A DNA stretch of 64,000 nucleotides from positions 496,001 through 560,000 of the forward strand of contig JACCLO010000009.1 of assembly GCA_029448655.1 (NCBI GenBank), in the 5' to 3' direction. Positions 34,821 to 58,385 of this stretch are shown piece after piece. Under the pieces are notes generated by a model. The model did not search any database. It saw nothing but the letters and a program-made list of their open reading frames with translations, and had not been told where the DNA came from. Both the position numbers and the translations under genes were made by a program. Origin of the DNA: Wolfiporia cocos (Eukaryota; Basidiomycota; Agaricomycetes; Polyporales; Phaeolaceae). Position 1 is the first letter of the stretch; every line of letters starts with the position of its first letter.

Positions 34821-35259
34821 ACATCACATGTGCATGTCAGGAGTTGGGTATGGTGGGGCCAGAAATGGTATGATGCCGAATCAGTATTTAGTAATTTTTG
34901 TATGGTACCTTGTGCATTTGCCTCCCTGCCCCAAGGATGAGACAAACCACTCTCGAAAAACTGTTGTTTTCTCATGTTGCTCATTTCTTCGTTCACTCTC
35001 TTTCATGTGATTCTGACACTTGCTTCAACAGTACTCGCTCAAAGGCATATTGCTAGCAGAGTTGTTCAAGGTGTAAAGACCAAGATGAGTATGGGGTGCT
35101 ACCCAGGCTCCTAAAACCAGCCATTGCTACAGTGTTCTTGCTCCAATAGTCATAGTCGCACTAAACGGTCATTATGTATAGTCACGTGAAAAATTACCAT
35201 ATTGGTCAGGAGTAAGGGGAGGAGAACACTCTAGGACGGCTGGCCAAACTGGCTATCTG

Positions 35260-35422
35260 AGATCCCCGAGCGCTGGTTGACGTGTGCTAAGTGGGCACTC
35301 TCGAACAATGCTTTTGGCACATTGACAGCTTGCGATCGGCGTAACCCCACTGCGGGTGCATGCCAGTTGAGCAGCGGACACGCATACTGGTGCTCACAGC
35401 ACGCAGCGTGCATGCGCTCTTT
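35260..35422 (+). repeat. Left inverted repeat of the helicase/DUF6589 unit
   Basis: Aligns without gaps with the reverse complement of 50772-50933, with 14 differences, all transitions. It ends about 20 bp before the helicase ATG. This copy keeps more CpG dinucleotides than its partner. Confidence 0.85.
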
Positions 35423-37647
35423 TTCTCGGCCATTCGTAAATATGCCTTCAGCTGCTGCTTCTCATGCCTCTGCATCACTGCACAATTGGTCTTTTCAGAA
35501 GATCAGAGCCCTTGTAATATCGAAATTCAACAAGTGTCCTTGTTTATTCCAGATGAAAGCAGTGTTAGCACTTTACATACGCAAAAACAATGTTGTTGCC
35601 GTCGCAGCCACCAGTTCTGGCAAGACACTTTCATTTTGGATTCCTCTTTTGATGGCTCTGGAGGATGGACAAGACAAGCTTATTATAATTGTTACTCCAC
35701 TGAATCTGTTAGGGAAGCAAAATGTCAATCTATTGTTGAAAGTGAATATAGGTGGAGTTGCTGTTGATTGCAAGAGTACTACTACCAAGACATTCGAGGT
35801 TAATTCCAATCCAGCTATTCTTTAGTCTTAGAACTCACAGTTTGTCACAGGACATCAAGATGGGAAAGCACCATGTCATTGTCATAAGCCCCGAAATTCT
35901 CATGCAAGACGGTGGTCCATGCGAGAAGCTATGGAAGAGTCCGGAGTTTGTACTCAGGCTTCTCTACATTGTTTTTGATGAAGGGCACTGTGTCCGGGAA
36001 TGGAACAGCTTCAGGGAGCAGTACAAGCACGTTGGCAGCCTCCAGTATCTGATCCCTGAAACGGTCCCATTCTACGTCACATCTGCTACACTCCCCTCCC
36101 CACTCTTACTAGACGTCAGTGAGATCTTGCATCTCCGACCGGGACGCACCGAACACATTCTTCGATCAAACGATCGACCCTCAGTTGCACTTGCTGTGCG
36201 CAAAATGCAGTTTGCGGCATCATCCTTCAACGATATCAATTTCCTCATCCCTGATGGGTTTCAAGATGGTGATCTCCCGCCACCACACTTCCTAGCATTC
36301 TTTGATAGTGTCAACGATGCGCAAAATGCTACGAAGCATCTCCGAAACAGGTTACCGAACCATCTACGACACAAGATCAAATATTTCCACTCTCATATGA
36401 CGGCAGAATATCGCAGCGATGAGTATGAAGCACTCAGCAGTGGAGAAACATATGGGTTATGTGTAACCGATGCATTTGGAATGGTAGGTCTCAACTCTTT
36501 CCTATTGATTGATATGCTAATGAGCACAATACAGGGCCTGGACGTGGCCGGCATTCAACTTGTCATCCAATGGAAAGCACCTACTAGTATGAATGCACTG
36601 CGGCAACGCTTCGGACGAGCTGCAAGAGGAGCAGGAGAATACGCATTTGCGATATTGGTTGCAGAGAGGGACCACTTCGACGAGGAGGCTCTAAACCGAG
36701 AGCTCGTCAAAGCAAAGCGACGAGACAGGGCTAAAAAGCGAAAGCAGAACCATCCGGGGAGTAAACTATCGATAAAGCGGAGCCGTACTAGTATGGGTAC
36801 TCAGCTATCTGAAACCCAGCCTCCTGCTCGCTTCAATGGACCCGATGCCAGCGATATTGATTCCAGCGGTGACGATCAGCCATTCGTCTCCTCAGCACCT
36901 ACCATCACAGATATAGCCCCTATCGTTACTCAGACAGACAGTGCCAATGCAATATCCTCCAGCACAGAGGCTGAACATGCAGAGCAGATTGATCTTGAGG
37001 AGGAACGTCGCAAGCTCTATGATCAACGTGATAAGGATATCACATCTCAGAGCAATAGGTCCCGGCACACACAGCAGAAACAGGATCGTTCCCTGCAGCC
37101 AGCCGCACTAGATTTCATCAATGCTGAGAGGCGAGGTTTCAAATGCCGGCGCAAGCCAATCACTCTAGCGTACTCAAACGATAAACGCGGTGCGCTCTCC
37201 TTGATTGTCTCTGGCGCCTGTGGCTGATCATTCTCACGATCAACTTGCAACTTGCAGACTTCGATCATATAGCCTGTGATGCGGACTCTCCTCAGGGTTG
37301 CTTCCGCTGCTCACCTAAACCTATGAGCATTTGCTGTGATCTCTGTCATCCAGAGGCATTTGGTCATCTCTCTGTCACCAATCTGAAGGTGGCAAGACCT
37401 ATGAAAAAGTCGAATATCAAGCCATTGAGGCAAGTCCTCAGGATCGGAATTTCCGGGATGTGCTCCTCAGGTGGCGTGATGACACTGTCCTGGCCAAATT
37501 TGGCCAGGCAGTATTTAATAATTTCGGCGGAAAGCTCATCTTACCAGGGCCGATTCATGATCGCATCGTTGCATGTGTGCGCAGCGGCAACGTGACAAAT
37601 GTCGAGCAATTCAAGTGGGAGATTCAGTGGAGGAGTGACTGGACTGA

Positions 37648-38363
37648 GAGGGACTTCAGTCAATTATCTTAATCTGCCAACTGCCCTTCGCTTAAGAAAT
37701 CGCAGTTGCGAGCTAGGTTTGCACGCAGATTAATCTGCTAACTGCGGCAGATTAATCTACTGTGACAATAAAATGGTACATCCCGGATTCGAACCAAGGA
37801 CCTTAGCGCAGATGAGAATAACACCATCGCAGCGTAATTAGTCAACTGAGCCATTGCGGCAACAGGTACCTGTGACCAATTAAAATATATATAACGCAAA
37901 TTTTACACACAATTTTCGCAAATCATCAAGGCAACTAACTGCTCCAACAAGCATACAGAAATCAATGATAGTGGTAGCTTGATTTGCCATGCTTGACCTG
38001 GGGCAACTCACCATGGGAAAGCTGAATACACTGGAATCACAGGTCTTTAGAGGCAGATTCATTTGTATTTGTGTTATGGAAGATGTTAAACTGCGAAAAT
38101 GAAGTTTACAAAATACTCTATATATTGCTTAAAATGGGGGCAAGACCAGTTGCACTGTAGCTCAGTTGGCTAATTATGCTGCGATGCTGTTATTCTCATC
38201 TGCACTAAGGTCCTTGGTTCGAATCCGGACTGTGCCATTTTATTGTCACAGTAGATTAATCTGCCGCAGTTAGCAGATTAATCTGCGTGCAAACCTAGCT
38301 CGCAACTGCGATTTCTTAAGCGAAGGGCAGTTGGCAGATTAAGATAATTGACTGAAACTCTAC
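37648..38363 (+). mobile_element. MITE copy 4, inside the helicase exon, with inverted core
   Basis: GAGGGACTTCAG...GAAACTCTAC, 716 bp, 7-bp TSD GGACTGA at 37641-37647 and 38364-38370. Removing it with one TSD joins the helicase frame as WRSDWTE-QYAPAIIE. Unlike copies 1, 2, 3 and 5, its interior runs backwards relative to the distinguishable outer ends (GAGGGAC end and GTAGAG end), so the core between the arms has been flipped. Confidence 0.9.
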
Positions 38364-38769
38364 GGACTGAGCAGTATGCCCCTGCCATCATCGAGCTTGC
38401 ACTTGCAAGTGGTGCTTTGATATCCAGTGAGGATATTATGCTGCAGGCAATCCCACTCACTGCACAAGCAAGCAACGTACCCACTTATTCCAATGCCGAA
38501 AAAGGTAATGTAGGGCGCAAGCGCAAGCTACCTACATGTGGTAGATGCTCACAGGTTGGTCATACAAGTATGTGTGATTATGATGTTATTGTATCCGTCT
38601 CTGATGATTAATACAGGTCGTAACAGGCATTGCCCTGCACTGTTAGAACCTCTTCCCAATCAGGATGAGAATACTCTCCCAGCTGCCATGTCTGAAGGTC
38701 AATCTGAGCACAGTATGGATGTCAAGTTTGTACCAGATAATACAGGTATAGTTATCCTAACTCTGCAAC

Positions 38770-39792
38770 TGTCACACGCCAATTTCAAGCTTCTAGGCAC
38801 AGTACCTTTTCTGATCATCAAGAGCACCCCCGAGGCTGGAGACCCAATGCCTCAGCTAGATCCATGCCCTATGCACGAACCACTACGGGCACTAGCTAAC
38901 AGCATCACCAGCCCTGCCTAAGAACCCTAGTCCCAGACCACATGTCCAGTCCAACATAAAGCCAATAGCAGTCACGTGACCTCGACCAACCACGATGAGC
39001 CCAGACCATACCTCATCAGGTCACGACCACCCAAGACTCACGGCTAGGACCATGTCCACCCAACCAACCGAACCCAATGCCTCCCATCTCCACGGACTAC
39101 AGCCATTACTGGCTACACGGTCATTACCGACCAAGGACTCACACCATTACTGGCACGGACTATGTACTATATGGACAAAGGCCCACGGAAGGCCTTAAAC
39201 TCCAGCCGCCCTAGTCTACGAGGAACACTGACCTTGGGGCAGCACCTGTATGACTGAGAACCCTAGCAGTCACAGGACTCTACGTACCGATCGCAGCCGA
39301 TCATGCTCGATCACCCTATGTCACGCACGGCCCGTACTGGCCAGTCCACGCTCGGCAGACGTCATCCTTCAGTACCAGCACGTGGGAACCTGGGCCGCCA
39401 CGTACCTTCCCCTCAGTACCAGTCCTTAGGAACCTGGACAGCAGACACATAGAACCCTGCCATTACCGGCGAACCCTCGATTGACGAGAACCACAGATTG
39501 GGCCTGACCTGCTACGTTGCCATAGACATCCAGTGCTCCCCTAGCCGTACCAGCGCTCATGCTACGATGCCCTTACTGGCCACCATGTAGCATGTAGATT
39601 ATCTCAGCGCCGATGCCCTATGGGCCACGCACCATAACATGTACAAATAGTGTAGGACTATATAAATGCCAGACAGTCTTGAGCGAACCTCAGACTTGTC
39701 TTGGCCTTTTCAGCCTGAGATGCCCGGACCAGGAAGGCGCTTTCATGCGATCCCCCTTCCCCCGGTGTGTGTCTTAGGTTGTACTTGTGTCA
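38770..39792 (-). mobile_element. Solo LTR (1023 bp), diverged member of the TGACACA family
   Basis: On the minus strand it starts TGACACAAGTACAACCTAAG and ends GCCAATTTC-like...GTGACA on the plus side (TGTCACACGCCAATTTC at 38770). Flanks are GCAAC (38765-38769) and ACAAC (39793-39797), a TSD with one G/A transition. It shares the GGGGGAAGGGGG, CGCCTTCCTGGTCC and GGCCAAGACAAGTCTGAGG blocks with 8877-9869 and 30896-31885. It appears to lie within the last intron of the helicase gene. Confidence 0.8.
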
Positions 39793-40269
39793 ACAACATA
39801 GCTATATGTCTGATTTGTAGAATATCCGGCACCATTGTAGAATAGATTCCATGATTGTGTTAGTATTTATGATTGACATACTAGACTTCGAGATCTCCAT
39901 TTTCAGCATCAATTTCTTCACCTATACCAAAATCTTCATTCTCTTCTGGCTCAGATGCAATGTTATCCATTGACATTAGCTTCACTAAGCTATTCTTCTC
40001 ATGGTCAGCTATTGTATATGCTGTTTTTCGGCCCTGTATTTGTGTATGAAGCCTGATCTTTTGCATGAATAAACCAAGTCGCTTGAATGTCTGTTTCAAT
40101 TTTGGTGGTGAATGCTTGAAGGTGCAATGATCTAATGCAAACATTTCTTCAAGTGTCATGCACATGTTCTTGAATACTCCAATCAAGACCGACTCTTTGA
40201 GTATGTGGGCCTTTGTTTGGTTTGAGAATTTCCCCCCATAGATTCTCTGGATTATCTTGATTCAGCTAG

Positions 40270-40811
40270 TGTTACGATCTTACCAGGTACACTCGAATAT
40301 CCCGTTTGACGCGTCACTGTGTATGAGGACTTAGCGTTCAACCATTGTACCCAGCGCTCTATTTCTAGGGGCCTCCGCTCAACCGTAGGTCCTGTTTCAT
40401 GTATAACAACCCTATGCCCATTCTCCATGTTTGCATCACGTCCTAGCTGATGTTCTGTGTCTAACCACAGTAGTTCTTAGTTTCATCCCTTGTTGCGCTC
40501 AACTGCAACACTTCTCCTTTATTACTTATATCGTTAGCCCAACGGACTTAATAGTAGCAGTACCAAGGACACTATGACCCCGATTAACAGACCGCAGTAG
40601 ATAACCTGATGTAAATACCGGTCGAGTTCCTCAGCTCGACCTTGTTGAATTACAAGGATCTTATACTCGTTCTCAAAGGCTTAAGCAATTAAGCCTGCAG
40701 CTTGTATATCGACACTCTGACTCTAAGGAGTCCGACGAGTAGTGCGCTACTCGACACGCTGAGTAACTCGACTTAGTTATTTTGCGCTGAACGGATATTC
40801 GATCCATAACA
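40270..40811 (+). repeat. 5' LTR of element A
   Basis: 542 bp. Contains AGCTCGACCTT at 40633-40643, the exact complement of the PBS at 40813-40823. Ends CCATAACA. Confidence 0.95.
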
Positions 40812-40812
40812 G

Positions 40813-40823
40813 AAGGTCGAGCT
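40813..40823 (+). other. Putative self-priming primer binding site, element A
   Basis: AAGGTCGAGCT, one base after the 5' LTR, is the exact reverse complement of AGCTCGACCTT inside the LTR (40633-40643). It does not resemble the TGG-starting site used for most tRNA primers. Tf1-like elements prime reverse transcription from the folded 5' end of their own mRNA; the same is inferred here. Confidence 0.6.
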
Positions 40824-40855
40824 CTAACAAAGCTCACTCACCAAAGTGCAAGCCT

Positions 40856-42529
40856 ATGCAACGATTCGACCCAGATCTACTGACCAGGTTAATCGAATTA
40901 CTCCCCGAAGCATACCGACGAATCTCCTATGAAGAGAAATACGAGTGGAGAGATCCCCTAGCAGGATTCTTCATGAAAGGAGGATACCTCACTATCCCGT
41001 CCTTAGACAGGCTTTTGCCAACTCGGGTACAGGTTCCCCCGTCCTCAAACGATCCTTGGAATCAGACGCGTGCCGCATTCGAGCGGTTCAGAACGGTCGC
41101 TGATATTATGACACCGACGCTTACCATCCACCGAGCTGATGGACAACAACAGGGAGAACAAACGATGAACACCCCCTCCACCGGAGGAACCATGGGTGTG
41201 GCAGGTACAGCCATGGGCGGCAGTACTATTCCAGGAAGCGGAAGCGCAAGCCAGGGCACAGGGGGAATGGCCCCTAACCCTCCGCCGGCTAATAATCCGC
41301 TCCCTAGCCATCCTGTTGGAGCAAACCCCTCTGGAACAGGAACGACTGGAGGAGGAGGATTTCCTGGAGGAGGAGGTCCCCCAGGTGGCACAGGGGGCGG
41401 AGGTCCCCTGGGCGGCGGCGGCAATCCAGCAGGCGGTGCAGGAGGCAATCCAGCAGGACCGCCAGGAGGAGGAGGCCCACCAGGAGGAGGAGGCCCACCA
41501 GGAGGAGGAGGCCCACCAGGAGGAGGAGCCCCACTAGGATGGGGTGCCCAGGCCCCTCAACCAGCCAGAGGAAATCGTATAAAGCTCACCACCCCCGAAC
41601 CATTCAAAGGGGAACGAAAGAAACTACAAAGCTTCAAGAACGACTGCAACACCTGGTTCACCATGTTCACAGCAGACTATCAGTCCGATGACCAGAAGAT
41701 CCTCTTTATCATGTCGTACATCAAGGGAAGCGACCGGGTGAACCAGTGGAAGGAAAACTACTATGCCAAATACACCGACCCGATCACCAGGGCATTCGTA
41801 CTACCCCTGCTGGCCCAGCTCAGTGCCGAATTCGATGCAGCCTTCGAACCGATCGAAGAGAAACAAAAAACCAATGACGATCTCTTCGATCTTAAACAAG
41901 ATAAGAAAAGCATCGACGATTTCAATATCGAATTCGACAACCTCGTAGGAAAGACAGGGTTGGACCGCGTACACTGTGACCCTCTCTTCGTCACAGTGTA
42001 CAAGAGAGCCATCCGACCAGCACTCGTAACCCACATCATAAATATCGTTCCCCCTGTCGTCACTCTTACCGAATGGATGAAACAAGTGTCCATAAATGAA
42101 AACAATTATAACACCTTTATCAAGGGGTGAGGAAACGATAAGAAGAAGTCGCAGTGGTGTACCAAAGCCCCGAGTCCCTCGGCCACGGCAGCCCCGACTA
42201 AAGACCCAAACGCAATGGATATCGATCGAATGTCCACAGAAGAGCGTCACAGGCTCCAGACCGAAGGACGCTGCTTCAACTGCAAGGAGAAGGGCCACCT
42301 CTCCAGCAACTGCCCCAAACAAAAGAAGAAGCCCACTTCCAAAGGAAAGGCCCGGAAAGCCGAGGAAGACACCCCCACAGCTCATACCGAAGAAGCTGAA
42401 GAAGACACAGATGATGGTGAAAGCAACGGAGCAACTGCCATAGAAGAAGCGGTCAACACGATCAGGGTTCTAAAGGTTGAGAATCCCTCATTCCTCGCCC
42501 AGATTCTCGACGAGCAGGATTTCGAGTAG
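40856..42529 (+). pseudogene. Gag polyprotein of element A (one in-frame TGA)
   Basis: ATG at 40856 (MQRFDPDLLTRLIELLPEAY). The N-terminal region is followed by a long Gly/Pro-rich stretch (roughly residues 110-240), then the capsid-like core (FKGERKKLQSFKNDCNTWF) and, after an in-frame TGA at 42128-42130, one CCHC knuckle (CFNCKEKGHLSSNC). It stops at 42527-42529 after DEQDFE. The TGA follows FIKG and fits a CGA to TGA change. Gag forms the particle and binds the element RNA. Confidence 0.85.
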
Positions 42530-45500
42530 GGAGGAAGCACACGGTCTTACCTTCCGAAAACGCAGCCCATGTAATTACATCGTATGAACGCGACAGATCG
42601 CTATTCATCCCTATAACCCTGGAGCTGCAAAAACCCGTGACAGTAAATGCCCTCATCGACTCGGGAGCCATGTCCTCCCTCATCCACCCGGAACTCGTCA
42701 TTCGACACAGAATCCTGACTTGACCGATCAAAAACCCCATCACCATTCGCAATGTTGATGGAACCATCAATAAAGATGGACAGATAGATCGGGAAGTAAT
42801 CCTCTCTATCCGATACGGAGGAAAGAAACATAAGATCCACTTCCTCGTCGGAAATATCGGAAAGGAAGACATGATCCTCGGATATAATTGGCTAAAGAAG
42901 GAAGGACCCAAAATCGACTGGATCAGGGGAAAGGTCGATGTCACTCCTAACAAAACCCCAGAAAAAACCCGAAGCGCAGACGTCACTATTCGCCTCGATA
43001 CGGTCGAAATGACCGTAACGCCCGAAGGGAAACTGCCAACCCGTGGAACCGATGGAGCCATCGGTTACGATCTCTATGCCTCCAGACCAGAAGAGATAGC
43101 CCCCAGGGGATGGAAGGCAATCCCCACCGGAGTCCATATGAAAATCCCGAAGGGATCCTATGGAAGGATCGCCTCACGATCGGGCCTCACCCTCAGGCAT
43201 GGCCTGACAGTAGGAAGAGGTGTCATCGACCCCGACTACAGAGGAGAGGTCCAAGTCATACTATTCAATCAATCGACAACCGCTCACCGCATCATTCCCG
43301 GAATGAGGGTTGCGCAGATTATATTCGAGCAAGCCATAACCCCTGATATAATCCAGGTCAAAGGGCTCGACGAGACTGAATGAGGAGAGAAGGGTTTCGG
43401 CTCCACCGATAAAGAAGAAATACCAAAGGATCCTGACCCTGGCACAAAAGACCCCTCGAAGGAACTACCTGCTGAAGAAGAAGACCAACTCCTACGAAGG
43501 TTTATCAAAATGGAAAGGAAGCTGACTGCCCCGCGAACCGAGACTAAACACAGATTCAGAAAGAGGATCGCACGACTCTCCTGCATTCGAAAGGCCATGA
43601 CCAAATCTCAAGAGTTTGTGGGAACAACAGGAAAAAGCGCTGACGAAACAATCCTCCCTGAACACCTGAAAGACTTTGCGAAAGTTTTCAGTAAATCGGC
43701 AGCCACCTCCTTCCCACCGTCGAGACCCTGGGATCATGCCATCGAACTGAAACCCGATTTCGTACCCCGAGACTGCAAGGTCTACGCTCTGTCCCCCAGG
43801 GAACAGAAAGCCATGGACGAATTCCTAGAAGAAAACCTCACAAAAGGTTTCATCTGACCCTCGAAGTCTCCGATGGCCTCCCCCGCTTTCTTCGTCCCTA
43901 AAAGGGATGGAGGCCTAAGGCCTTGCCAAGACTACAGATATCTAAATGAAGGAACGATTAAGAATGCATATCCCCTACCCCTAATATCCGAACTCATCAA
44001 GAAGCTAAAAGGGGCGAGGATTTTCACCAAAATGGACCTGCGAGCAGGATATAACAATGTGCGAATCAAAGAAGGCGACCAATGGAAGGGCGCATTCAAG
44101 ACGAATGCCGGTCTCTACGAGCCCACAGTAATGTTCTTCGGGATGTGCAACTCGCCCGCTACGTTTCAGTCCATGATGAACGAAATCCTCAAGGAAGAAA
44201 TAGCAGAAGGATGGGTAGTGGTATACATGGACGACATCCTCATCTTCTCCCCAGACCAAAACACACACCAAGAACGAGAACGGCGAATTCTGCGAAAACT
44301 TGCCGACAACAAGTTGTTTATGAAACCAGAAAAATGCGCTTTTGGAGTTAACAAGGTAGAATTTCTAGGATTAGTGATCAGCCCAGGGCATGTCCAGATG
44401 GACCCGGCCAAACTCCAAGGAATTCGGAAGTGGCCCACCCCACGAAACGTCAAAGGGGTCCGCTCCTTCCTGGGCTTCGCAAACTTCTACCGAAAATTCA
44501 TCGATCATTACTCCGCACATGCCCGACCACTCATCGACCTCACAAAAACCGCAACAGGGAGCGGCTTCAAATGGACTGATCGAGAAGAGAAGGCCTTCGA
44601 ATTCCTGAAACAACAATTCGTAAAAGCTCCGGCCCTGTTGCTCCCCGACAAAATGAAACCGTTCATCCTCGAGACAGACGCATCTCAATACGCCCTTGGT
44701 GCAGTGCTCAAACAAAAGGACGATGAAGGGAACGAACGGCCAGTAGGCTATCTCTCCCAATCCCTCACTGCAGCTGAACGAAACTATGAAATCTACGATC
44801 GAGAGCTTCTCGGAATAGTCCGTTCCCTCGAAGAATGGCGCCACCTTCTAGAAGGGGCACCACACCAGATTCTGATCAGAAGCGATCACCAGAACCTTAC
44901 CTATTGGCGAAGCACCCAGAGATTGAATCAGAGACAAGCAAGATGGCACCTCTTGCTGTCCCAGTTCGACATCCGATTACAACACATACCCGGAAAGAAA
45001 TTGATAATGACAGACACCCTCTCACATCTCCTTAACTAAGACAGCTCAGAACACGACAATGAAGATCTCCTCATGTTGCCCGACGAACTGTTTGTCCACA
45101 CCATCGAGATACCGATCATCGATTGGATCAAGATCGCGAAGCCCTTCAACCCGATCGCGGAACAGGCTCTCCGCGCCCTCAGAACAGGAGAGGCTGCCCC
45201 TTCGAGAACAACAATGGAAGACTGGCAGTACAGCGAAGGAATCCTCTTGTACAGGGGACGAATGTACGTTCCCAAGGACCCTACCTTGAGAAGGGACGTG
45301 GTCTCTACATATCACGATCCAATCGCGGCAGGCCACCCCAGAATCTGGGGGACGACACTGAAAGTGCAGGAACACTTCTGGTGGCCTGACCTCCGAAAAA
45401 CGGTGGCAGAATATGTCAAAGGATGCACCGTATGTCAGCAAATGAAACCCGACAGAAACCTGACGAAGTCGCCACTACAACCGATCCCGACAAAAAAGGA

Positions 45501-47208
45501 TGCCCTCCCCTTTTCGCAATGCTCAGTTGACTTCATCACGGACCTTCCCCCGGTAGGGAAGTATGACTCAATTATGGTCATTGCTGATCATGGGTTATCT
45601 AAGGCGATATCATTAACCCCATACAGCAAGACCATCACCAGCGAAGGGGCGGCTGACATATTTCATCGGCAAATCTATTCGAAGTACGGACTCCCCCGAA
45701 AGATCATATCCGACCGAGGACCGCAATTTGCGTCCAAGCTCTTCCAAGGACTCTGTAAAGTCCTTGGAATCGAGTCCGCCCTCAGCACGGCCTACCACCC
45801 ACAGACAGACGGACAGACAGAAAGGATGAACCAACAAGTCGAAGTCTACCTGCACATATACTGTATGAACGATCCAAGACTTTGGGCAACGCGGTTGGCA
45901 GATGTAGAATTCGCTCACAACACATGAAGAACTGAGGGGCGGCCTGCCCCTACAGAAGTAATCATGGGGTATATCCTGAGAGGATTACCAGATGAAGTCA
46001 AAACCACCCAGGTACCGGCAGCAGCTGACCGATTAAAAGCCGCACGAGAAGCAAGGGAAAAGGCAATTGCCGCTCATGAACTAATGCAGAAGCGGATGGC
46101 AGGAAGGACCCTACGAGACCTCCCTAAGTTCAACAAAGGGGATAAGGTCTGGCTCGATGCCAAGAACCTCCACCTCCCATACGAATCTCGGAAGCTTGCC
46201 CCCAAAAGAGAGGGACCATTCACTATCTCCGAAAAGCTTGGGAATGTCACCTATCAGCTAGCCCTACCGCCCCAATGGAAGGTACACCCGGTCTTCCATG
46301 TGGCCCTAATGAAGCCATTCAATGAGACTGGGGTGCACGGACCCAATCATATGAAGCCGCCCCCGGAATTAGTCGACGGGGAAGCAGAGTATGAAGTCGA
46401 AGCCATCCTGAACCAACGACAATACCGAGGGAAGAAGCAATACCTCGTCCACTGGAAAGGCTACCCATCGGCGGAAGACTCATGGGAAGGCGAAGCCAGC
46501 TTAAAGAATTCCCCGGACGTCCTCAGGGAGTTTAAAAGCAAGAGGACGAAGACCAAGGTCCGGCAGGTCGAAGAAATAGCATGTCGACGCCACTCCCTAC
46601 AACTACGCCGTCTGAGCGACCTACCGCCCCGACGATGCGGCGATCCCTCGCAGTCCGCATGGGGTACCAGACAGGCAGGTGTTACGGCTGCTCGGAGGAT
46701 GCCCACGTCCGCATCAGACATGCGCTCACCTGGCACAGGTCCGACATCCCCCCCGGAGGGCAGGCGACCCCCTGGACCGATCGATTTGAACTCGTACAGG
46801 AACTCACCGACATATTCGACCAATACCAGGACGTCACAGAGAGAATCGTCCAACTCGAGCGCACAACCCTCCTTCAGCAACAGAGGCTTGGGCGGTGCAT
46901 CGGTCAGTGGATCGACCACCTCAGGGCGTCGACACCATCGCGAATCCGGCGAGCGTTCGCAGAGGTCGAAGCGGGCCCGCCCCGCTTACCACGAACGCGA
47001 AGCCCTGTCCCAGCCATGCCCCCCTGGTTACTCGACGACGGCGAGCTGGATCGAATCGCAGAACCATTCTATTTTATGGAATACAGTCATGTGGTACCTC
47101 GCGACGCTGCCGTACCGACCACCCCCGCAGGACCTCGACCTCGAGAATCAGTGCGCTCTCCTCCGCATCCACGAAACGATGAACGACGCCCAGTTCGAGA
47201 GGGGTTGA
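42530..47208 (+). pseudogene. Pol polyprotein of element A: PR, dUTPase, RT, RNase H, IN, chromodomain
   Basis: One frame, -1 relative to gag, from the gag stop to 47208 with stops at 42721 (TGA), 43381 (TGA), 43855 (TGA), 45037 (TAA) and 45925 (TGA). Comparison with element B shows CGA at 43381 and an Arg codon region at 45925. Motifs: protease [11 protein letters not shown]; dUTPase GYDLYA, RSGLTLRHGL, GVIDPDYRGEV and [19 protein letters not shown]; RNase [14 protein letters not shown]; integrase zinc finger CTVCQQMK and core D...SDRGPQFA...E; chromodomain EYEVEAIL...YLVHWKGYPSAEDSWE. The last part (from about 46570) overlaps the third ORF in another frame. The catalytic set is intact apart from the stops. 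Confidence 0.9.
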
Positions 47209-47660
47209 GCCATGGTAGGGCTCCCCCCTCGCCGACCTCTGCAGCTGCTAGCGACAGAGTTAGTAACTGATCTCCATCAGTTGAGATCATTACCCGGGAG
47301 GAGTGGGAGCGAGGGAGGGACGGATGGGACGAATCCCTTTACCAGCTGCCTACCTGGCTCAGACAGCGTCTTTGGGCCCACCACCACCACCAGCGGTACG
47401 AGTCAGGAGAGTATCTTCACACCGTCCCCTCAGCTCGCTCACCACCTCGACCATCTGCCGAAGAGCCCTGTTGTCGATGCGGTAGCCCCTGGCATTGGGT
47501 CCTCGACTGTCCTGACTACAGATGCCCTACCTGCAGAGTCACACAGCCAGGACATCGTGTCGGCAAGTGTGCCCTCTATCAGGTATGGATCCCCCCTCCG
47601 ACGCCTCCGCTCCCCGATACAGATGCGGGATACAACGACCCCTACCCAGAGGCCCTCTGA
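46581..47660 (+). pseudogene. Third ORF of element A with paired zinc knuckles, overlapping the pol tail
   Basis: ATG at 46581 (MSTPLPTTTP), in a different frame from pol. It encodes a helical, probably coiled-coil segment (DRFELVQELTDIFDQYQ), then EPFYFMEYSHVV, then after an in-frame TGA (47268-47270) IITREEWERG, LPTWLRQRLW and two adjacent knuckles: CCRCGSPWHWVLDC and CPTCRVTQPGHRVGKC. It stops at 47658-47660 after YPEAL. Element C has the same order and motifs in its third ORF although the elements are clearly diverged, so this frame is under constraint. It resembles a second Gag-like RNA-binding protein. Function unknown. Confidence 0.7.
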
Positions 47661-47716
47661 GTGGCCGTGAAGCTTGGATTTCATCGAGGGTGATGAAGGC
47701 TTGAGGGGGGGGGTGA

Positions 47717-48259
47717 TGTTACAATCTTACCAGGTACACTCGAATATTCCGTTTGACGCATCACTGTGTATAAGGACTTAGCGTTCAACCATTGTACCCA
47801 GCGCTCTATTTCTAGGGGGCCTCCGCTCAACCGTAGGTCCTGTTTCATGTATAACAACCCTATGCCCATTCTCCATGTTTGCATCACGTCCTAGCTGATG
47901 TTCTGTGTCTAACCACAGTAGTTCTTAGTTTCATCCCTTGTTGCGCTCAACTGCAACACTTCTCCTTTATTACTTATATCGTTAGCCCAACGGACTTAAT
48001 AGTAGCAGTACCAAGGACACTATGACCCCGATTAACAGACCGCAGTAGATAACCTGATGTAAATACCGGTCGAGTTCCTCAGCTCGACCTTGTTGAATTA
48101 CAAGGATCTTATACTCGTTCTCAAAGGCTTAAGCAATTAAGCCTGCAGCTTGTATATCGACACTCTGACTCTAAGGAGTCCGACGAGTAGTGCGCTACTC
48201 GACACGCTGAGTAACTCGACTTAGTTATTTTGCGTTGAACGGATATTCGATCCGTAACA
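47717..48259 (+). repeat. 3' LTR of element A
   Basis: 543 bp, preceded by the purine run GAGGGGGGGGGTGA-like tract at 47703-47716 and ending CCGTAACA. Confidence 0.95.
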
Positions 48260-50771
48260 GCTAGATCTCATTTTTAAGAGTGAACTCCATCTACCTTGAT
48301 GTATAAGTTGTTGTGCTCAACCAACCAATCAATGGCACAGAAGTGGTTCTTTTGGCCTGTTGGATTACATAAAATATTCATCCTGATAGCCTGACTAAAG
48401 CCACTGAATGTTGGACATTTTTAAGATAGTTATACTCTACCTACCGGAGTCCCACTAGATACATAACATGCAAGTCATTCGAGAATCGTAGCATTTGTGA
48501 TGCATACTTATGTTTGCCACATCCTTTGAAAATGAATATCCATGGCATCAAGCAATCCTCCACATGGCCAATATCTCCAGCATTCATTGCATAGGATATT
48601 TCCTCATAGAGTAGAAAGTGCCGTTCATGGAGAAGGGAATTTTCTAGCTGTTCATCACGGAAATCAGATGGCTGACAGCGCATTAACCCAAACTGATGAT
48701 CAGCAACATATGTGGATGTCAATGTCTTTGAAAGTAAAACTATATCTTCCCATGTAGGCTCAGATTTTGCCCAAGATTCAAGACTGTCAAATTGGCTGCT
48801 CCTCTTGCTGATTTCTTCCTGCCAGCAATCTAACCGAGACACAATGCCAACATGCTGTATTATTTCATGCATTCTTCGAAAGCCTGGTTTGCTAGCAATT
48901 TTTCCTGTCTCCTTGGGCCTGATCTCTGCCACAAGCTTCATAAGGCTTGTATCATCAATATGGGCTTGTTTTGGATGAATTGTGATTTTCCATATTGCAT
49001 CTGCACATGCCATTTTGAGATGAAAGAGACCAGGGACAAAAATGACATGTTGCATCCTATGCCATGGTGTCTTCTCCTCTCCTCATGAGTACTGTAAGCT
49101 CTGTACATGTTCATTTGTAGATAGATCACCATGGACAATTGTTACATGATTACCAATTGGCTTGCAACCAGGCTGATCACTGGGATCCCCAATTCCACTT
49201 TGGGCAAAGAGATTTGTGAGTGCCTCTGCATTTCCCATAATTGTAGAATCCATTGCTTGAGCAGGAACTTGCTGTGATTTTACAAGGGGGATTGGATCAA
49301 CAAGCTCAGGCTCACCAATCTGCCTGATAAATTGTCTGAAGTAATCTGGACCATGGTGTATGAGATCCTGAAGAAAAATCCATGCATTGAACTGCTGTCG
49401 ATGATTCATGCCTGAAGCATCAATTGGATCGGGATGTAGAGCTAGAAGTTTTGTCCAGTCTACCCCATAGTCTGCTTGCCTAAAGTTGGCAGGATTATTC
49501 TTGGAACTCTTCCACAATTATTCTGAGCATTGAAGATCTTTCAATGCCACATTGTGTTCAAGACATATAAGTGTGCCTGATGTGAGATAAAGAAGGGCAT
49601 CCTGTAGCTTCTCAACAGTTGGAACAAGATGCTTCAGTTCAACATCAAAATTGTCATATGCATATGCAGCCAGAAGTGTGCATCCTAATTTCTGTATTTC
49701 TACTGTGGCCTCCTTGGATAAGCTGGATATTGCATCATCAATTGTAGATCATGATATTGATATCCAGAGGTGGGACAGCAACTCAACTACTACTTTGGGC
49801 ACACCACAAGAATTTAAGAATACACCGACAATGCTTTGTAAAACATTACATCGCTGATGAGTGCTCTGCATCATCACACTGATGCATAAAATCTTTTTCT
49901 ATATGATTCAGCATTTCAAAAATCTAATAGCATGCTCACCATGTTAAGTATTCCTGCTTGTCATTCAGCTTCTGCAAAGACATCATTCTCCATATCCATG
50001 TCATCAGCATCCTCGGGCAGGGTAGGATTATCAATTTCATGCCAATATTTGTCTTCACTATCATTTTCCACAGCTATGTCATCTATATCTGATTTCTGCA
50101 GCTGTATATCGGCATCTCTCCTATCTAGATCCATTTCAACATAATCTTGATTATACTCGGGTCTTTGCCTATCTGTACGTGCACGTTTTCTCTCCCAGTT
50201 TTTTGCAAGCTTCCTTGTATGTGCACACTTCCACCGGCATGCTAAAGAGCAGTTGGCATCGAGTACTGCACCGATTAGATCCCATAGGCATGGTGCAAGT
50301 GTGGACATGTATTCTGCGAGTTTTTTGAGGTCAAAATGCTCCACCTGCTGTTGCATAGCATGCCTAGCATTGAAATCCATATCTTTGAATCCTGTAAGCT
50401 TGACTACCTCCTCCATGTATATCTGCTTGACCATGCCGAAAGCCCATTCTTTGGTCTGTTCTCCTGCTGCAGAGCTCACGGCCAAGCAATCTAGAATACC
50501 TGTAATGTTCACAGCTATGTCTGCAACCTCAACTTGGTGAGTATATTCCGGTTTCTGTAAGAGGAACTCCAAAAATGCAGATATAGATTTGTTCGTTTCA
50601 TGGAATACCTGAAGGATATGAAGAAATTGCTCGGGGGGTAAAGCCATGGTGAACTGAAAAGCAGTGGGCCTGAGACTTGCACATATATCATCTGCACCTC
50701 ATGGCAAGCACATTGCATCTGTATTACTGAAGTACATGGAAACTAAACTACTCTGTTTACTTGTATGCATG

Positions 50772-50933
50772 AAGAGTGTGTGCATGCTGTGTGCTGTGAG
50801 TGCCAGTATGCGTGTCCGCTGCTCAACTGGCATGCACCTGCAGTGGGGTTACACTGATCACAAGCTGTCAATGTGCCAAAAGCATTGTTCGAGAATGCCC
50901 ACTTAGCACATGTCGACCAGCGCTCGGGGATCT
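50772..50933 (-). repeat. Right inverted repeat of the helicase/DUF6589 unit
   Basis: Partner of 35260-35422. It lies about 125 bp upstream of the DUF6589 start codon. At most sites where the left copy has CpG this one has TpG or CpA. The LTR of Ty3 element B begins 2 bp beyond it. Confidence 0.85.
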
Positions 50934-50935
50934 TG

Positions 50936-51644
50936 TGTTACGGTTATTTTGATTTTTCGAATATCGACAGAACTCACCACCGGGCGAATACGATACAGGG
51001 ACTTGTTGCACAACCAACTCCCCTGGCTACTCGTGACTTTACTGGGCGCATCCCCAGTTGTACTAGTCTGTAGGGCGCGTTTCATCTTTAGCAGATCCAA
51101 CTCTGCCACCGTTTCATGTTCATCATTTACTAGCTGATAGATGGCGTTCAACCGCCATCATTCCTATCTATCGTCTCGGATATATCACTACATACTTATC
51201 AAATGTCTGGTACTATAACGTAGATAGTATCGGTGACATCTGGGACAAACTTGACCCCTAAAACCTAACGTAGTATATAAACTCATGTACTTACTGTCGA
51301 GGCTCTTTAGCTCGACCTTGTTGTACAAACAAGAAGTCTTATACTCATTCTCAAACGTAGGAAACTACGCTCAGTATTTTTCGCTCGAGCAAATCGAACG
51401 ACTAAGTCCTCGAAGTGCACACTGACTTCTCGGACTTAGGCGAGTCTTATATTATATTCGACTCGCACCTGAACAGATTATATCCTCTAACGCGTATTGG
51501 ATATTAACCGATCTCCTAAGGACTTCACTTAGGACTTGAAGGCATCTAACGAGTATTTGCCTTGCATACGGCGACGTGCCTACGTGCAGAAGAACGATCT
51601 ATATTCGCGTCCCGAATATACGAACGGGTATTCGACCCGTAACA
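50936..51644 (+). repeat. 5' LTR of element B
   Basis: 709 bp, TGTTACGG...CCCGTAACA, same length as the LTR of element C at 57666-58374. Only the ends and a few core words resemble the LTRs of element A. Confidence 0.93.
51274..51319 (+). promoter_or_regulatory. Putative LTR promoter and transcript start, element B
   Basis: TATATAA at 51274-51280 lies 35 bp before AGCTCGACCTT (51309-51319). If the transcript begins there, its first 11 bases would pair with the PBS at 51646-51656. Start position inferred, not shown. Confidence 0.45.
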
Positions 51645-51645
51645 G

Positions 51646-51656
51646 AAGGTCGAGCT
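51646..51656 (+). other. Putative self-priming primer binding site, element B
   Basis: AAGGTCGAGCT, one base after the LTR, is the exact complement of 51309-51319. Sequence beyond the 11 bases differs from element A, so the pairing block itself is what is kept. Confidence 0.6.
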
Positions 51657-51690
51657 TATCACACCCTCACCTACCACGGTGTAAGGGCAC

Positions 51691-53539
51691 ATGATATTTG
51701 GACCAGAATTCCCAGCACGACTGATTGAACTCTTGCCCGAGGACATTCAGGGAGTCTACAGACTCAACCGATACGAGTGGACTGACACCATTGGAGCCTT
51801 CCGTAACCGCGGAGGAATTGTTGTCATTCCAAGAGAAGATAGGGCATCGAAGTGGGTACAAGTATACCCCTCCGCAGGAACGACCGCTTGGGAAATAACG
51901 CGTAAAGCGTTCGAACGATTCGGAGAAATCCCTCCGATGTCAACCGCGACGTTGACCGAAAACGAAACCGAAACCATCAACAGAACCTCCGATGCCGATG
52001 GAAATACGAATCAGCCTTCGGGCACCACAGGAATGGCAGGAATTGAGCGCATCGGAAATGATGGGAGAAATCCTGGAAACCTTACAGGAACAGATAACAG
52101 CCAGACCAGAGGACAGGACCCTCCAGGATTTATATCTGCTTTTGCGCAGGGTGGGATTGGGTCTATGGCTGGAGGAACAGACCTCTTTGGAACCCCCCCC
52201 ACAGAACGCACCCGGAATGGGTAGCGGAGGAGATCCGTCTTGGATTAGCCCAAGCGGAGGAATGGGAACGACAAACCCAGGAACGTGGCCTTCAGGCCTA
52301 TTTGGACGAACCTCCGCAGGTACAAGCAGAGGAGGACTGGGAGGAAACTTCGGACTCGGAGGAGGGAATGCCCCCCCTCCTGGAGGACTCGGAGGAGGAG
52401 CCCCCGCGAACCCCGGAGGAGGAACCCCTGGAGGAAACTCAGGGAACCCCGGAGGAAACCCAGGAAACCCGGGTGGAGGATACCCGGGAGGAGGAGGACC
52501 CCCAGGAAGGCCTCCACCACCGAATGCACCGCAGCCTCAACCTCCGGCGCCGAACCCGTACTACCGACCCCCGATGATAAAGATCAATTCCCCCGACGTA
52601 TTCGATGGGGAACGATCCGACATGCAGAACTTCATAAACCAATGCAATTCCTGGTTTACGATGTACGAAACGTCGTTCCAGAATGACGTTCAGAGAGTGA
52701 TCTTTATCCTCTCTTACATTTCGAACAAGGGGAAAACGGGCCAATGGAAACAGAACTATCACCGGGTCTATACGAACCCCCTGACGAAACGATTCTTCCC
52801 GCCTAGTCTCGCACAATTTGATGCAGACTTTCAGAAGGCCTTCGGAGCCATCGAAGAGGTACAGAAGGCGCAGAAGAAAATCCTGGAAGTAGCCCAGGAC
52901 CGAAAAGACATCGATGATTACATCACCGAATTTAACAACTTAGCCGGAAAGGCTCAGTACGACCGATACAGCGCGGATGGAAACGCGCTGCTCATAACCC
53001 TATTCGAGAAAGGGTTACCGGAGCACACGACCCGATACATCATCGGTGTTCGACCGCTACCAGCGACCATTGACGAGTGGCAGTCTGCCGCCTCGTACTA
53101 CGAAAACACGTATAAAATATTCTTGAAACGCGATAAACCGTTTGTCAAGAAAAAGGCTTGGCAAGCCTCGAACCAGAACAACGGACGCACTAGTGCTCCA
53201 CAGACGACCGCACCGAAAGATCCGAATGCGATGGATGTAGATCGAATGACCACCCAGGAAAGGGACGATCACATCAAGAAGGGCAAGTGTTTCACCTGCC
53301 ATCAGCCAGGGCATATGTCGCGAGACTGCCCAAAGAAACCAAGGAAGCCAGCCCGCCCTAGGCGGACTACACGAAAGACCGAAGAAGAAGAAGCCGAGCA
53401 AGAAGCTCGCATCGAAGAAGTCTCTGAGGAAGAGACTGAATACATCACCGCGAACAGAGCGGTCACAGCGATTAGGGCCCTGAAAGCCAAGAACCCCGAG
53501 CTCCTAGCACGGCTCGTAGAAGAACAGGATTTTGCCTAG
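51691..53539 (+). pseudogene. Gag polyprotein of element B (frameshift at a C8 run)
   Basis: ATG at 51691 (MIFGPEFPARLIELLPED), homologous to element A gag. The first frame ends at 52224. The homologous protein continues one frame over from the run of eight C at 52193-52200 (PPQNAPGMGSGG). The rest has a Gly/Pro/Asn-rich repeat region, the capsid-like core (FDGERSDMQNFINQCNSWF) and one CCHC knuckle (CFTCHQPGHMSRDC), and stops at 53537-53539 after EEQDFA. A single-base slip in the homopolymer, biological or from sequencing, is the simplest explanation. Confidence 0.85.
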
Positions 53540-56500
53540 GAGGGAAGCCCACGGTCTTACCCTCCGAGAAAGCAGCACATGTAATTACCTCGTTTGAGAA
53601 GAATCGATCCCTCTTCATCCCGGTAATCATGACGCTGGCAAAACCCGTGAAGTGCAATGCACTAATTGACTCAGGAGCAATGTCGAACCTGATCCACAGC
53701 AGAGTGGTAGAAAAATACAAGGTGCCCACGCAACCCTTGAAAAACCCGATTATCGTCAAAAACGTCGACAGAACAGAAAACAAAGATGGGCGAATAGATC
53801 GAGAAGCCACCATACTCCTACGATATCCGAAGACCCAGAAAACGCGAAAAGTCCGATTCCTGGTAGGATCAATCGGCACGGAAAATATGATCCTAGGGTA
53901 TGGATGGCTGAAAGACGAAAACCCCACAATCGACTGGAAAGACCAGACGGTTGATGTACGATCAGCACTAGGGGCAGAAGAAAGAAAACAGGAAACCACG
54001 ATCCGTATGGATACGGTGGAAATGGTAGTTTCCCCAGAAGGAAAAATTCCAACAAGGGGAACCCAAGAAGCTGCGGGATACGACCTTTACGCCGCAGAAG
54101 AAGCTGAAATCCCAGCAGGGGGATGGAAACTTATCCCCACAGGGGTAAAAATGAAGATCCCAAAAGGATCGTATGGGAGATTGGCCGGACGATCAGGCAA
54201 CACCCTCAGACACGGATTGGTAGTGCAAGCCGGAGTCATAGACTCAGACTACCGAGGAGACGTTGGAGCCATCGTCTTCAACTACTCAGACAAAGCACAT
54301 AGAATTATCCCGGGCATGCGAATAGCCCAGATAATATTCGAACGACACCTCACCCCCGACATTGTAGAGGTCAAAGACCTAGATGAAACAGAACGAGGGG
54401 AGAAAGGGTTTGGATCCACAGACCAACCAGAAGAAACAAATCGACGATTATACACTCCCGAAGAATACGAAGCAATCCGACGCTTCGCGAAAGAAGGCCC
54501 CAAGATCATAGGGAAGAAAGAGGAGACGCAAAGGAAGTTCCGAACAAAGATACAGATCATTAATGCTGTCCGGAAAGCATTGACGAAATCCCAAGAATTC
54601 GCACAGAAAACCCCCGAACCAGAAAAGACGATCGAGGAGATGGTCCCAAAACACCTATTAGACTTCGCCAAGGCGTTCAGTAAGGAATCCGCGGCGGCAT
54701 TTCCCCCGTCAAGACCATGGGACCACGCGATTGAATTAAAACCAGACTTTGTGCCAAAAGACTGCAAGGTCTATGCGCTGTCGCCAAAAGAACAACAGGC
54801 ACTGGACGAATTCCTGAAAGAAAATCTGGCTAAGGGATTCATAGTTCCTTCGAAATCCCCAATGGCGTCCCCTTTCTTTTTCGTCCCAAAGAAAGACAAC
54901 GGCCTCCGGCCATGTCAAGATTATCGATACCTGAACGAAGGGACAATAAAGAACGTTTATCCCCTGCCACTCATCTCAGAGCTCCTAGAGAAATTGAAAG
55001 GAGCAAGGATCTTTACGAAGATGGATCTCAGGGCGGGATACAACAACGTTCGAATCAAGGAAGGAGACCAATGGAAGGCGGCTTTCAAAACAAACCGAGG
55101 GTTATACGAGCCCACAGTTATGTTTTTCGGATTATGCAACGCACCGGGAACCTTCCAGGCAATGATGAATGAAATTCTGAAAGAAGAAATTCTCGAAGGA
55201 TGGGTGCTTGTCTACATGGACGACATCCTCATTTTCTCGGAGGATGAGAAAGTGCACAAGGAACGAGAACGACGAATTCTCCAAAGACTGGTGGATAATC
55301 ACCTCTTTGTGAAACCTGAAAAATGCGCCTTCGGCGTCGACAGAGTCGAGTTCCTAGGGCTGGTCATCACCCCAGGAAACATTCAGATGGACCCAGCGAA
55401 ACTCAACGGAATTAAGGAATGGCCGACTCCTCGGAATCTCAAGGAAGTCAGATCCTTCCTAGGATTTGCGAACTTCTATCGAAAATTCATCGACCACTAC
55501 TCAACGCACGCCCGACCCCTAGTAGACCTCACGAAAACGGTCACAGGGACGGGGTTCCAGTGGACGAATAAGGAACAAAGAGCGTTCGACTTCATGAAGC
55601 AAGCCTTCACGACGGCGCCCGCACTAGGGACGCTAGATAAGGAAAAACCATTTATCCTCGAAACAGACGCATCTCAGTTCGCCACAGGAGCAGTGCTGAA
55701 ACAGACAGATGAAACGGGGCGCGAACGGCCGGTGGGATATCTCTCACAATCCCTGACACCAACAGAACGGAACTACGAAATCTACGATCGCGAACTACTT
55801 GGAATAGTCCGAGCACTAGAAGAATGGCGGCACCTGTTAGAAGGAGCACCACATCGGATCTTGATCCGAAGTGATCACCAGAACCTGACGTACTGGAGAA
55901 GCCCACAGCGCCTAAATCGGCGATAAGCGAGATGGCATCTGTTCCTCTCGCAATTCGACTTGAAGTTACAACACGTCCCCGGAAGAAAACTGGTCATGGC
56001 GGACACACTTTCTAGGTTGTATCACCTTGACGAAAGTGACGAAGACAACGAGGGAATAACCATGATCCCAGACGAGCTCGTAGTCCATGCAATCCAGATC
56101 CCGATCATTGATCAAATCAAAAGCGCCAACGATCGAGATGAATCTGCGGAACAGGCGATCCGCGCCCTAGAAGGAGCAGGCGAATTCCCCGTGAGAACCG
56201 CCGCAGATGATTGGCAGCAAACGGATGGAATATTGCTCTACAAGGGCAGGATGTACGTGCCAAAGGACGAGGCTCTCCGACGGGACGTCATCTCAAAATA
56301 CCACGACTCAATCCCGGCCAGACACCCTGGGATCTGGGGGACAACGGTACAGGTCACAACCCACTTTTGGTGGCCTGACATGAGAACAATGATAGCGGAA
56401 TATGTCTGGGGCTGTGCAATCTGTCAACAGATGAAACCGGATCGAAATCCGATCAAACCCCCACTACAACCGATACCGACGCGGGAGGACGCCCTCCCCT

Positions 56501-57665
56501 TCTCACAATGCTCGGTCGATTTTGTCACCGACCTGCCAAGAGTGGGAAAATATGACTCGATGATGGTGATCGTCGACCATGGCCTATCCAAGGCGATCTC
56601 TCTCACCCCATGCGACAAAACGATCACTAGCGAAGGGGCGGCAGAGATATTCCACCAAAAGATCTACTCTCTATATGGCATTCCCCGAAAAATCATATCA
56701 GACAGAGGACCACAGTTCGCATCGAAGCTTTTCAAGGAATTATGCAAACTGCAGGGGACAGAATCAGCGATGAGCATGGCATACCACCCCCAGACAGACG
56801 GACAGACAGAAAGGATGAACCAACAGATCGAAGTATACCTTCGCATCTATTGCATGAATGACCCTTTTCAATGGGTGCAAAGACTACCTGACGTCGAATT
56901 TGCGCACAACACCAGACGAACTGAAAATCGACCTGCGCCACTTGAAATAATCCTGGGATACACCCCGAGAGGATTCCCAGACTATGACAGAGTAGGGAAC
57001 GTCCCAGCAGCAGTCGACAGGATCAAGAAAATCAAAGAGGCGCGAAAAATGGCATTCATCGCGCATGAATTAGCCCAGAAAAGAATGGCAGGGCGATTCC
57101 TTAGGGAACTGCCAAGGCTTGAGAAAGGGGACAAGGTTTGGCTCGACGCCAAGAACCTGACGATTCCCTATGAATCGAACAAACTAGCACCAAAAAGGGA
57201 AGGACCCTTCACCATCACAGAAAAGATGGGAACCACGACATACCGGTTGCAGTTACCGGCGAACTGGAAAATTCATCTGGTGTTCCACGCTGCCTTACTA
57301 AAGCCATTCAAAGAAACAAGGGTGCACGGACCCAATTATCTACGACCGCCACCTGATATCATCAAGGGACAGGAGGAATACGAAGTCGAAGCAATCCTGG
57401 CTGACAGATGGCGAGGAAAGAAGCATCAATACTTCGTCAAGTGGAAAGGCTATGCCACGGCCGACAACTCATGGGAAGACGAGGCAAATTTGGAGCATTC
57501 CAAAGAGCTGATAAAAAGCTACCACCGAACGCGAGTCAGAACAACCCCAACACTTGAAAGCCGAACAGTGATAGTATGTCGACGACTTGCCACCAGCTCC
57601 CTCGCCGCGCTTTGCCCCCTCACAGCGATGCGGGTCATAGAGAAGGATGACCGAGAGGTACGCCG
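53540..57665 (+). pseudogene. Pol polyprotein of element B: PR, dUTPase, RT, RNase H, IN, chromodomain; one stop, 3' end cut
   Basis: The frame is -1 to gag; the first Met is at 53629 but translation probably enters by frameshifting. Motifs: protease [12 protein letters not shown]; all five dUTPase motifs ([44 protein letters not shown]); [12 protein letters not shown]; RNase [14 protein letters not shown]; integrase CAICQQMK and SDRGPQFASKLF; chromodomain EYEVEAIL...YFVKWKGYATADNSWE. A TAA at 55924-55926 replaces the CAA (Gln) seen in element C. Element C cuts the frame just after REVRR; codons read beyond 57665 come from the inverted LTR. The third ORF begins at 57576 (MSTTCHQL) and has a TGA where C has CGA. 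Confidence 0.9.
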
Positions 57666-58374
57666 TGTTACGGGTCGAATACCCGTTCGTATATTCGAGT
57701 CGCGAATATAGATCGTTCTTCTGCACGTAGGCTTGTTGCCGTATGCAAGGCAAATACTCGTTAGATGCCTTCAAGTCCTAGGTGAAGTTCCTAGGAGATC
57801 GTGTAATATCCAATACGTGTTAGAGGATATAATCTGTTCAGGTGCGAGTCGAAATAGAATATAAGACTCGCCTAAGTCCGAGAAGTCAGTGTGCACTTCG
57901 AGGACTTAGTCGTTCAGTTGCTCGAGCGAGAAATACTGAGTGTAGTTTCCTACGTTTGAGAACGAGTATAAGACTTCTTGTTTGTACAACAAGGTCGAGC
58001 TGAAGAGCCTCGACAGTAGGTACATTAGTTTATATACTACGTTGGGTTTCAGGGGTCAAGTCCGTCCCAGATGCCACCGATACTATCTACGCTATGGTAC
58101 CAAACGTTTGATAAGTATGGAGTGATATATCTGAGACGATGGATAGGAATGATGGCGGTTGAACGCCATCTGTCAGCTAATAAACGATGAACATGAAACG
58201 GTGGCAGGGTTGGATCTGCCGAAGGTGAAACGCGCCCTATAGACTAGTACAACTGGGGATACGCCCAGTAGAGTCACGAGTAGCCAGGGGAGTTGGTTGC
58301 ACAACAAGTCCCTGTATCGTATTTGCCCAGTGGTGAGTTCTGTCGATATTGGAAAAATCAAAATAACCGTAACA
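57666..58374 (-). repeat. 3' LTR of element C
   Basis: 709 bp, reverse complement of the LTR type at 50936-51644. Differences seen are mostly transitions, with at least one transversion. Carries AGCTCGACCTT on the minus strand at 57991-58001, like A and B. Confidence 0.93.
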
Positions 58375-58385
58375 TCAGCTCCTCC

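What the first reader, a model, noticed from the sequence alone, without database searches (positions are those of the whole stretch)
35260..50933. Two-gene unit: RecQ-like helicase and DUF6589 protein, convergent between 162-bp inverted repeats
Seen directly: ungapped inverted repeats, each followed within about 20-125 bp by the start codon of an inward-facing gene, and the two genes end 40 bp apart. Netting out three younger insertions gives a compact unit of about 5.9 kb. A helicase and a protein of unknown function as sole passengers between terminal repeats looks like a DNA transposon whose machinery is DUF6589 plus helicase. I do not know of a description of such an element, but I cannot search the literature.
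Basis: partly seen in the sequence, partly recalled or inferred. Interest (0 to 1): 0.88.

Follow-up and report, generated by a model that had tools for sequence, protein, structure and literature searches.

The report
Fungal transposon with helicase and transposase
This is a decayed copy of a fungal cut-and-paste DNA transposon that carries its own transposase and DNA helicase, very probably of the already described AcademH type; the one useful novelty is evidence that the protein family called DUF6589, listed as of unknown function, is its transposase.

Summary
The unit is larger than stated. The terminal inverted repeat is 318 bp, starting CAGGCTCCTAAAACCA at 35104. Its right copy is split by a second Gypsy retrotransposon at 50936, so the true right end is at window-scale 68036, outside the window. 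The ends carry a 9-bp target-site duplication (8/9 match); joined flanks match uninterrupted copies of the host repeat elsewhere.

In this genome 6 of 8 helicase loci have a convergent DUF6589 gene within 30 kb. A second family has perfect 9-bp duplications at 9 of 12 fetched short copies. In seven other named fungi the two proteins come from contigs of identical length. A confident model of a full-length DUF6589 relative has a Hermes-like transposase fold; the window copy keeps the putative D, D, E motifs but has an in-frame stop.

AcademH (Kojima 2020; not held, known through citing papers) combines a helicase with 9-10 bp duplications, so this looks like a new family of a known kind. DUF6589 could not be compared with a reference Academ transposase. 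No held paper mentions DUF6589, so naming it as the transposase may be new.

The parts
35095..35103 (.). Left 9-bp target-site duplication, GGTGCTACC (right copy GGTGCTATC at C76:564037-564045, outside the window)
   Evidence: joined flanks continuous with empty paralogous sites
35104..35421 (+). Left terminal inverted repeat, 318 bp, terminus 5'-CAGGCTCCTAAAACCA; the finding's arm 35260-35421 is its inner half
35442..38769 (+). RecQ-like helicase gene (DEAD and Helicase_C domains, cysteine cluster, C-terminal zinc knuckle), likely intron at about 35799-35850; contains insertion 1 and probably resumes after insertion 2 to end at about 39845
   Evidence: relatives; RecQ assignment of a relative. 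Introns, knuckle and gene end judged by eye
37648..38364 (.). Younger insertion 1: palindromic repeat, a like copy in the window at 32742-33428; boundaries approximate
38770..39793 (.). Younger insertion 2: about 1.02-kb repeat, 40 further matches of about 0.75-1.1 kb in the genome (84-89%)
39881..40261 (-). C-terminal part of the DUF6589 transposase gene
   Evidence: weak Pfam match E 0.086 (below cut-off); similar to P0003/P0010 by eye
40270..48259 (+). Younger insertion 3: Gypsy LTR retrotransposon with a dUTPase, LTRs of about 543 bp (98.7% alike), target duplication GCTAG; by eye it sits in an intron of the transposase gene
48271..50647 (-). DUF6589 transposase gene, main part; putative catalytic YDN, GDL and EHN motifs; in-frame stop at about 49083-49085; introns inferred; the N-terminal frame 49961-50647 has no DUF6589 match of its own
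50772..50933 (-). Inner half of the right terminal inverted repeat (91% to left); outer half resumes after the second Gypsy at C76:563884-564036 (window-scale 67884-68036, outside the window)
50936..64000 (+). Younger insertion 4: second Gypsy LTR retrotransposon splitting the right terminal repeat; runs to window-scale 67877, target duplication TCTTG; its length suggests further nested sequence (not examined)

Best explanation
A degraded autonomous DNA transposon, very probably of the AcademH lineage. DUF6589 is the DDE transposase: it recognises the long terminal inverted repeats, cuts at the CAGG...CCTG ends and joins them to target DNA with a 9-bp stagger, which repair turns into 9-bp duplications. 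The RecQ-like helicase is an accessory enzyme of the element, most likely unwinding ends or strand-transfer intermediates, or helping repair at donor or target. The element spans 35104 to window-scale 68036, about 6.25 kb net of four later insertions, and is probably dead: an in-frame stop in DUF6589, one Gypsy in the transposase gene and one in the right repeat, and repeats in the helicase gene. Shown here: boundaries, repeats, duplications, empty sites, gene linkage, predicted fold. Inferred: catalysis, the helicase's role, and membership of the Academ superfamily.
Confidence: 0.88

Rival explanations
1. It is a DUF6589 transposon of a separate superfamily that merely resembles AcademH in duplication length and in carrying a helicase.
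For: DUF6589 is not linked to Academ in any held paper (0 papers hold the term), and I had no Academ sequence to compare.
Against: Helicase-carrying elements with 9-10 bp duplications are what AcademH denotes, and fungal Academs are reported to carry DEAD/RecQ domains.
Confidence: 0.1
2. It is a KolobokH element (DDE transposase plus RecQ helicase, reported only from fungi).
For: KolobokH also encodes a RecQ helicase and has been found only in fungi (PMC9587614 passages).
Against: Kolobok makes TTAA duplications (recalled, no call). Here they are 9 bp of varied sequence. [quoted passage not shown] here the genes are convergent.
Confidence: 0.01
3. The helicase and DUF6589 are host genes or passengers between copies of an unrelated short repeat.
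For: Short copies with the same ends and no room for the genes exist (C4; second family).
Against: Pairing recurs with different terminal repeats in one genome and on same-length contigs in other species; an internally deleted copy keeps both gene starts; DUF6589 has a transposase-like fold.
Confidence: 0.01

Closest known systems
AcademH (Academ superfamily, Kojima 2020, Mobile DNA 11:15; paper not held, known through citing papers)
   Same: Transposase plus helicase in a DNA transposon, 9-bp target duplications, DEAD/RecQ domain type, Basidiomycota among the hosts
   Different: No difference shown; the identity of DUF6589 with the Academ transposase was not tested directly
KolobokH
   Same: Fungal DNA transposon with a RecQ helicase
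   Different: [quoted passage not shown] here 9-bp duplications and convergent genes
hAT (Hermes)
   Same: Predicted fold of the transposase: RNase H-like core with an all-helical insertion before the last acidic residue; best structural match
   Different: hAT usually makes 8-bp (also 5, 6 or 7) duplications (PMC12730594 passages); no hAT Pfam domain was hit; no helicase partner known to me (recalled)
Mutator/MULE
   Same: Long terminal inverted repeats and about 9-bp duplications (recalled)
   Different: No MULE domain hit in the transposase; helicase partner
KDZ/Zisupton
   Same: DDE transposons common in basidiomycetes (recalled)
   Different: Zisupton makes 8-bp duplications (PMC12730594 passages); no KDZ domain hit in four full-length DUF6589 proteins

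Membership tests
AcademH | 9 or 10 bp target-site duplications | tested here: met
   this family 4 of 7 copies in register with 8-9 of 9 matching; second family 9 of 12 fetched copies 9/9. Criterion from PMC10045372
AcademH | Encodes a helicase (superfamily II, DEAD/RecQ type) | tested here: met
   DEAD and Helicase_C in the window gene; a relative matches recQ_fam (below that model's curated cut-off) and WRN/RecQ structures
AcademH | DDE-type transposase in the same element | tested here: met
   linkage; fold; motifs by eye. Predicted fold only; no biochemistry
AcademH | Transposase belongs to the Academ superfamily by sequence | not testable with these tools
   I knew of no Academ reference protein or profile in the libraries; the AcademH paper is not held
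KolobokH | TTAA target duplications | tested here: not met
   duplications are 9 bp of varied sequence; the TTAA criterion is recalled
Mutator/MULE | MULE transposase domain | tested here: not met
   Pfam scans of the window pieces and of 4 full-length relatives found DUF6589 and otherwise only weak rows below cut-off, none MULE
KDZ/Zisupton | 8-bp duplications | tested here: not met
   9 bp here; criterion from PMC12730594
hAT | hAT-type transposase by sequence | tested here: not met
   no hAT Pfam domain; only the fold is similar

The most novel reading that the evidence does not exclude
DUF6589 transposases with their convergent RecQ helicase form a distinct, widespread basidiomycete lineage of helicase-assisted DDE transposons, separate from the published Academ superfamily, and this gives Pfam DUF6589 its first function.
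Probability: 0.1. Interest if true: 0.55.

Novelty: new member of a known kind. Interest (0 to 1): 0.32.

Why it matters
It gives a likely function to a Pfam family of unknown function that has many relatives in mushroom-forming fungi: DUF6589 would be the transposase of helicase-carrying transposons. Fungal genes now listed as hypothetical proteins or DNA 3'-5' helicases (names) could then be re-annotated as mobile-element genes. It also supplies clean termini, target duplications and a pair of enzymes for testing why a cut-and-paste transposon would need a RecQ-type helicase.

Tried and rejected
Rejected: KolobokH, Mutator, KDZ and hAT membership (see Membership tests). Cargo: the 21-29 kb spacing of the gene pair at C7, C34a, C56 and C12 first suggested cargo genes; at C34a the space holds two Gypsy elements and at C7 a gene with KDZ-associated cysteine clusters, so I read it as nested insertions; the interiors at C56 and C12 were not seen. 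A 711-bp inverted repeat around the compact C34b pair begins like the Gypsy LTRs and was not taken as its terminal repeat; no terminal repeat was found there, nor at C56 and C12 with 3-kb pieces. At C7 only a 58-bp inner match was found. The C56 locus is nearly identical to C34a over the stretches compared (99.5-99.9%), so it is not independent. The second helicase query (N-terminal piece) gave 10 places: the window, the deleted C12 copy, three already among the 8 loci, and 5 further weak ones (E 7e-6 to 5e-4) that I left out of the 8; none of the 5 lies within 100 kb of a DUF6589 locus. A sequence search of solved structures with the DUF6589 profile found nothing credible (one row, E 0.11). 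ARAGORN found no tRNA in the window.

Full report
What is there. The inverted repeat reported at 35260-35421 and 50772-50933 is real (162 bp, 148 identical), with a helicase gene facing in from the left (Pfam DEAD and Helicase_C) and a DUF6589 gene facing in from the right (PF20231, E 9.4e-53 and 4.8e-14 for two pieces; the N-terminal frame has no DUF6589 match and the C-terminal piece only a weak one, E 0.086). Three later insertions lie inside: a palindromic repeat, a roughly 1.02-kb repeat with 40 further matches of about 0.75-1.1 kb (a lower bound) and a Gypsy element with LTRs 98.7% alike and a 5-bp duplication GCTAG.

True boundaries. Searching the window's own genome (64.4 Mb, 76 contigs; the window is C76:496001-560000) with 35200-35460 gave 17 matches, several beginning at the query's outer edge and so running further out than the finding's arm. 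Alignment of copies puts the terminus at 35104, CAGGCTCCTAAAACCA, with a matching right terminus at C76:564036, window-scale 68036. The right repeat is interrupted by a second Gypsy element from 50936 to window-scale 67877, flanked by TCTTG. The terminal repeat is thus 318 bp on the left.

Target-site duplication. Flanks (printed, compared by eye) read GGTGCTACC and GGTGCTATC at the window copy (8 of 9), GGGAAACCT/GGGAAACCC (8 of 9), GGATTGTAT twice (9 of 9) and CCATTGTCT/CTATTGTCT (8 of 9). A fifth copy (C4) shows GATAAACGC but with 6 extra bases on the left, and two copies (C12, C67) could not be tested: 4 of 7 in register. The window copy's joined flanks gave 40 matches, two of them its own flanks and many partial; the 3 that were fetched align across the junction at 87-88% without the insert.

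Gene linkage. A protein search with the helicase found 8 loci in the genome, and PF20231 gave 25 matches that I grouped into 13 loci. Six of 8 helicase loci have a DUF6589 locus within 30 kb, all six convergent; random placement of 8 and 13 points, counting pairs within 40 kb, gave at most 3 of 8 in 20,000 trials (clustering of transposons is not modelled). Two of the six (C34a, C56) are nearly identical where compared, so five are independent. Two helicase loci and 7 DUF6589 loci are unpaired, and 5 further weak DEAD-only places from the N-terminal query were not counted and are unpaired. An internally deleted copy (C12:4581305-4582050) keeps the starts of both genes between remnants of the repeats; its outer ends were not found.

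Second family. The C34a pair sits between repeats ending TAGTCTYGATCAGACG, whose sharp outer edge recurs in many copies (40 of 192 candidates scored). Of 12 short copies fetched, 9 have perfect 9-bp duplications, one (L050) fails in strict register (1 of 9), and in two I did not find both termini. The C34a element itself shows 7 of 9 (GTGTTGCTG/GTATTGCCG, read by eye).

Other species. Among 120 listed DUF6589 proteins (196 passed, 120 shown) and 94 helicase relatives, 9 contig lengths are shared: Obba rivulosa twice, Earliella, Gelatoporia, Pholiota conissans, Hymenopellis, Leucocoprinus (gene numbers NP233_g11097 and g11098), Sparassis latifolia, and one unnamed metagenome contig. Among contigs over 10 kb it is 8 of 36 DUF6589 contigs. 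Controls in the same call: 0 shared between the 94 proteins of the other DUF6589 search and the helicases, and one shared short length (2,642) between the two DUF6589 searches. That 0 is also a result against a universal pairing at this sensitivity: the helicases found by this query do not share contigs with that DUF6589 subfamily. Contig identity is inferred from length plus species name; the four contigs over 100 kb (0.16-1.49 Mb) say little about closeness, the five of 5-51 kb say more.

Comparison with what is known. PMC10045372 (passages) states that AcademH makes 9 or 10 bp duplications, AcademX 3 or 4, and ties the difference to helicase versus nuclease. PMC10799480 (passages) reports AcademH as low-copy elements in Basidiomycota, Ascomycota and Mucoromycota. 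PMC6416283 (passages) says most fungal Academ copies (1,568 of 1,938) hold recognisable domains, for example DEAD helicase and recQ_fam. PMC8290104 (passages) noticed putative non-autonomous Academ insertions in Marasmius oreades. The original AcademH paper was not held; I know its title and reference from these papers and its content otherwise only from memory. Each AcademH feature that I could test is met; the transposase's own membership was not testable. KolobokH (PMC9587614 passages) fails on the duplication (TTAA recalled).

Mechanism. Most likely cut-and-paste by a DDE transposase with a 9-bp stagger. The helicase probably assists strand opening or repair; nothing here shows its role. 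The window copy is probably a dead relic, older than four other insertions.

Scores. The element is a new family of a known kind. The link from DUF6589 to a transposase fold and to AcademH may be unpublished: 0 of the held papers contain the word DUF6589, though most subscription papers, and the AcademH paper itself, are missing from that library.

Noticed in passing
window 42724-43383; also L034 and L035: Gypsy elements of this genome carry a dUTPase domain, between gag and the reverse transcriptase or at the end of an ORF after the chromodomain; dUTPase occurs in a paper on fungal Tcn1-like chromoviruses (PMC2864245, search listing only), so probably known.
   Followed up: partly
window 32742-33428 and 37648-38364: Two palindromic repeats of about 0.7 kb, alike, with a GGTTCGANNCC-like box reminiscent of a tRNA-derived short element (motif recalled); ARAGORN calls no tRNA.
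   Followed up: partly
window 38770-39793: A roughly 1.02-kb repeat with 40 further matches of about 0.75-1.1 kb at 84-89% identity; class not determined.
   Followed up: no
G000 C34:197213-198888 and 222595-224095 against C56:254501-256182 and 224000-225500: Nearly identical (99.5-99.9%) stretches of a DUF6589/helicase locus on two contigs, breaking off about 124 bp beyond one terminal repeat: recent duplication or assembly haplotypes.
   Followed up: partly
G000 C4:2545157-2545611 and C67:1775608: Two copies share six extra bases (CATGGC) outside the usual CAGG terminus, perhaps a variant terminus of a subfamily.
   Followed up: no
window 34181-34820: A repeat of about 640 bp just outside the left end, found at 91-93% also inside two other copies of the family (L018, L022) and at window 20925-21541.
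   Followed up: no
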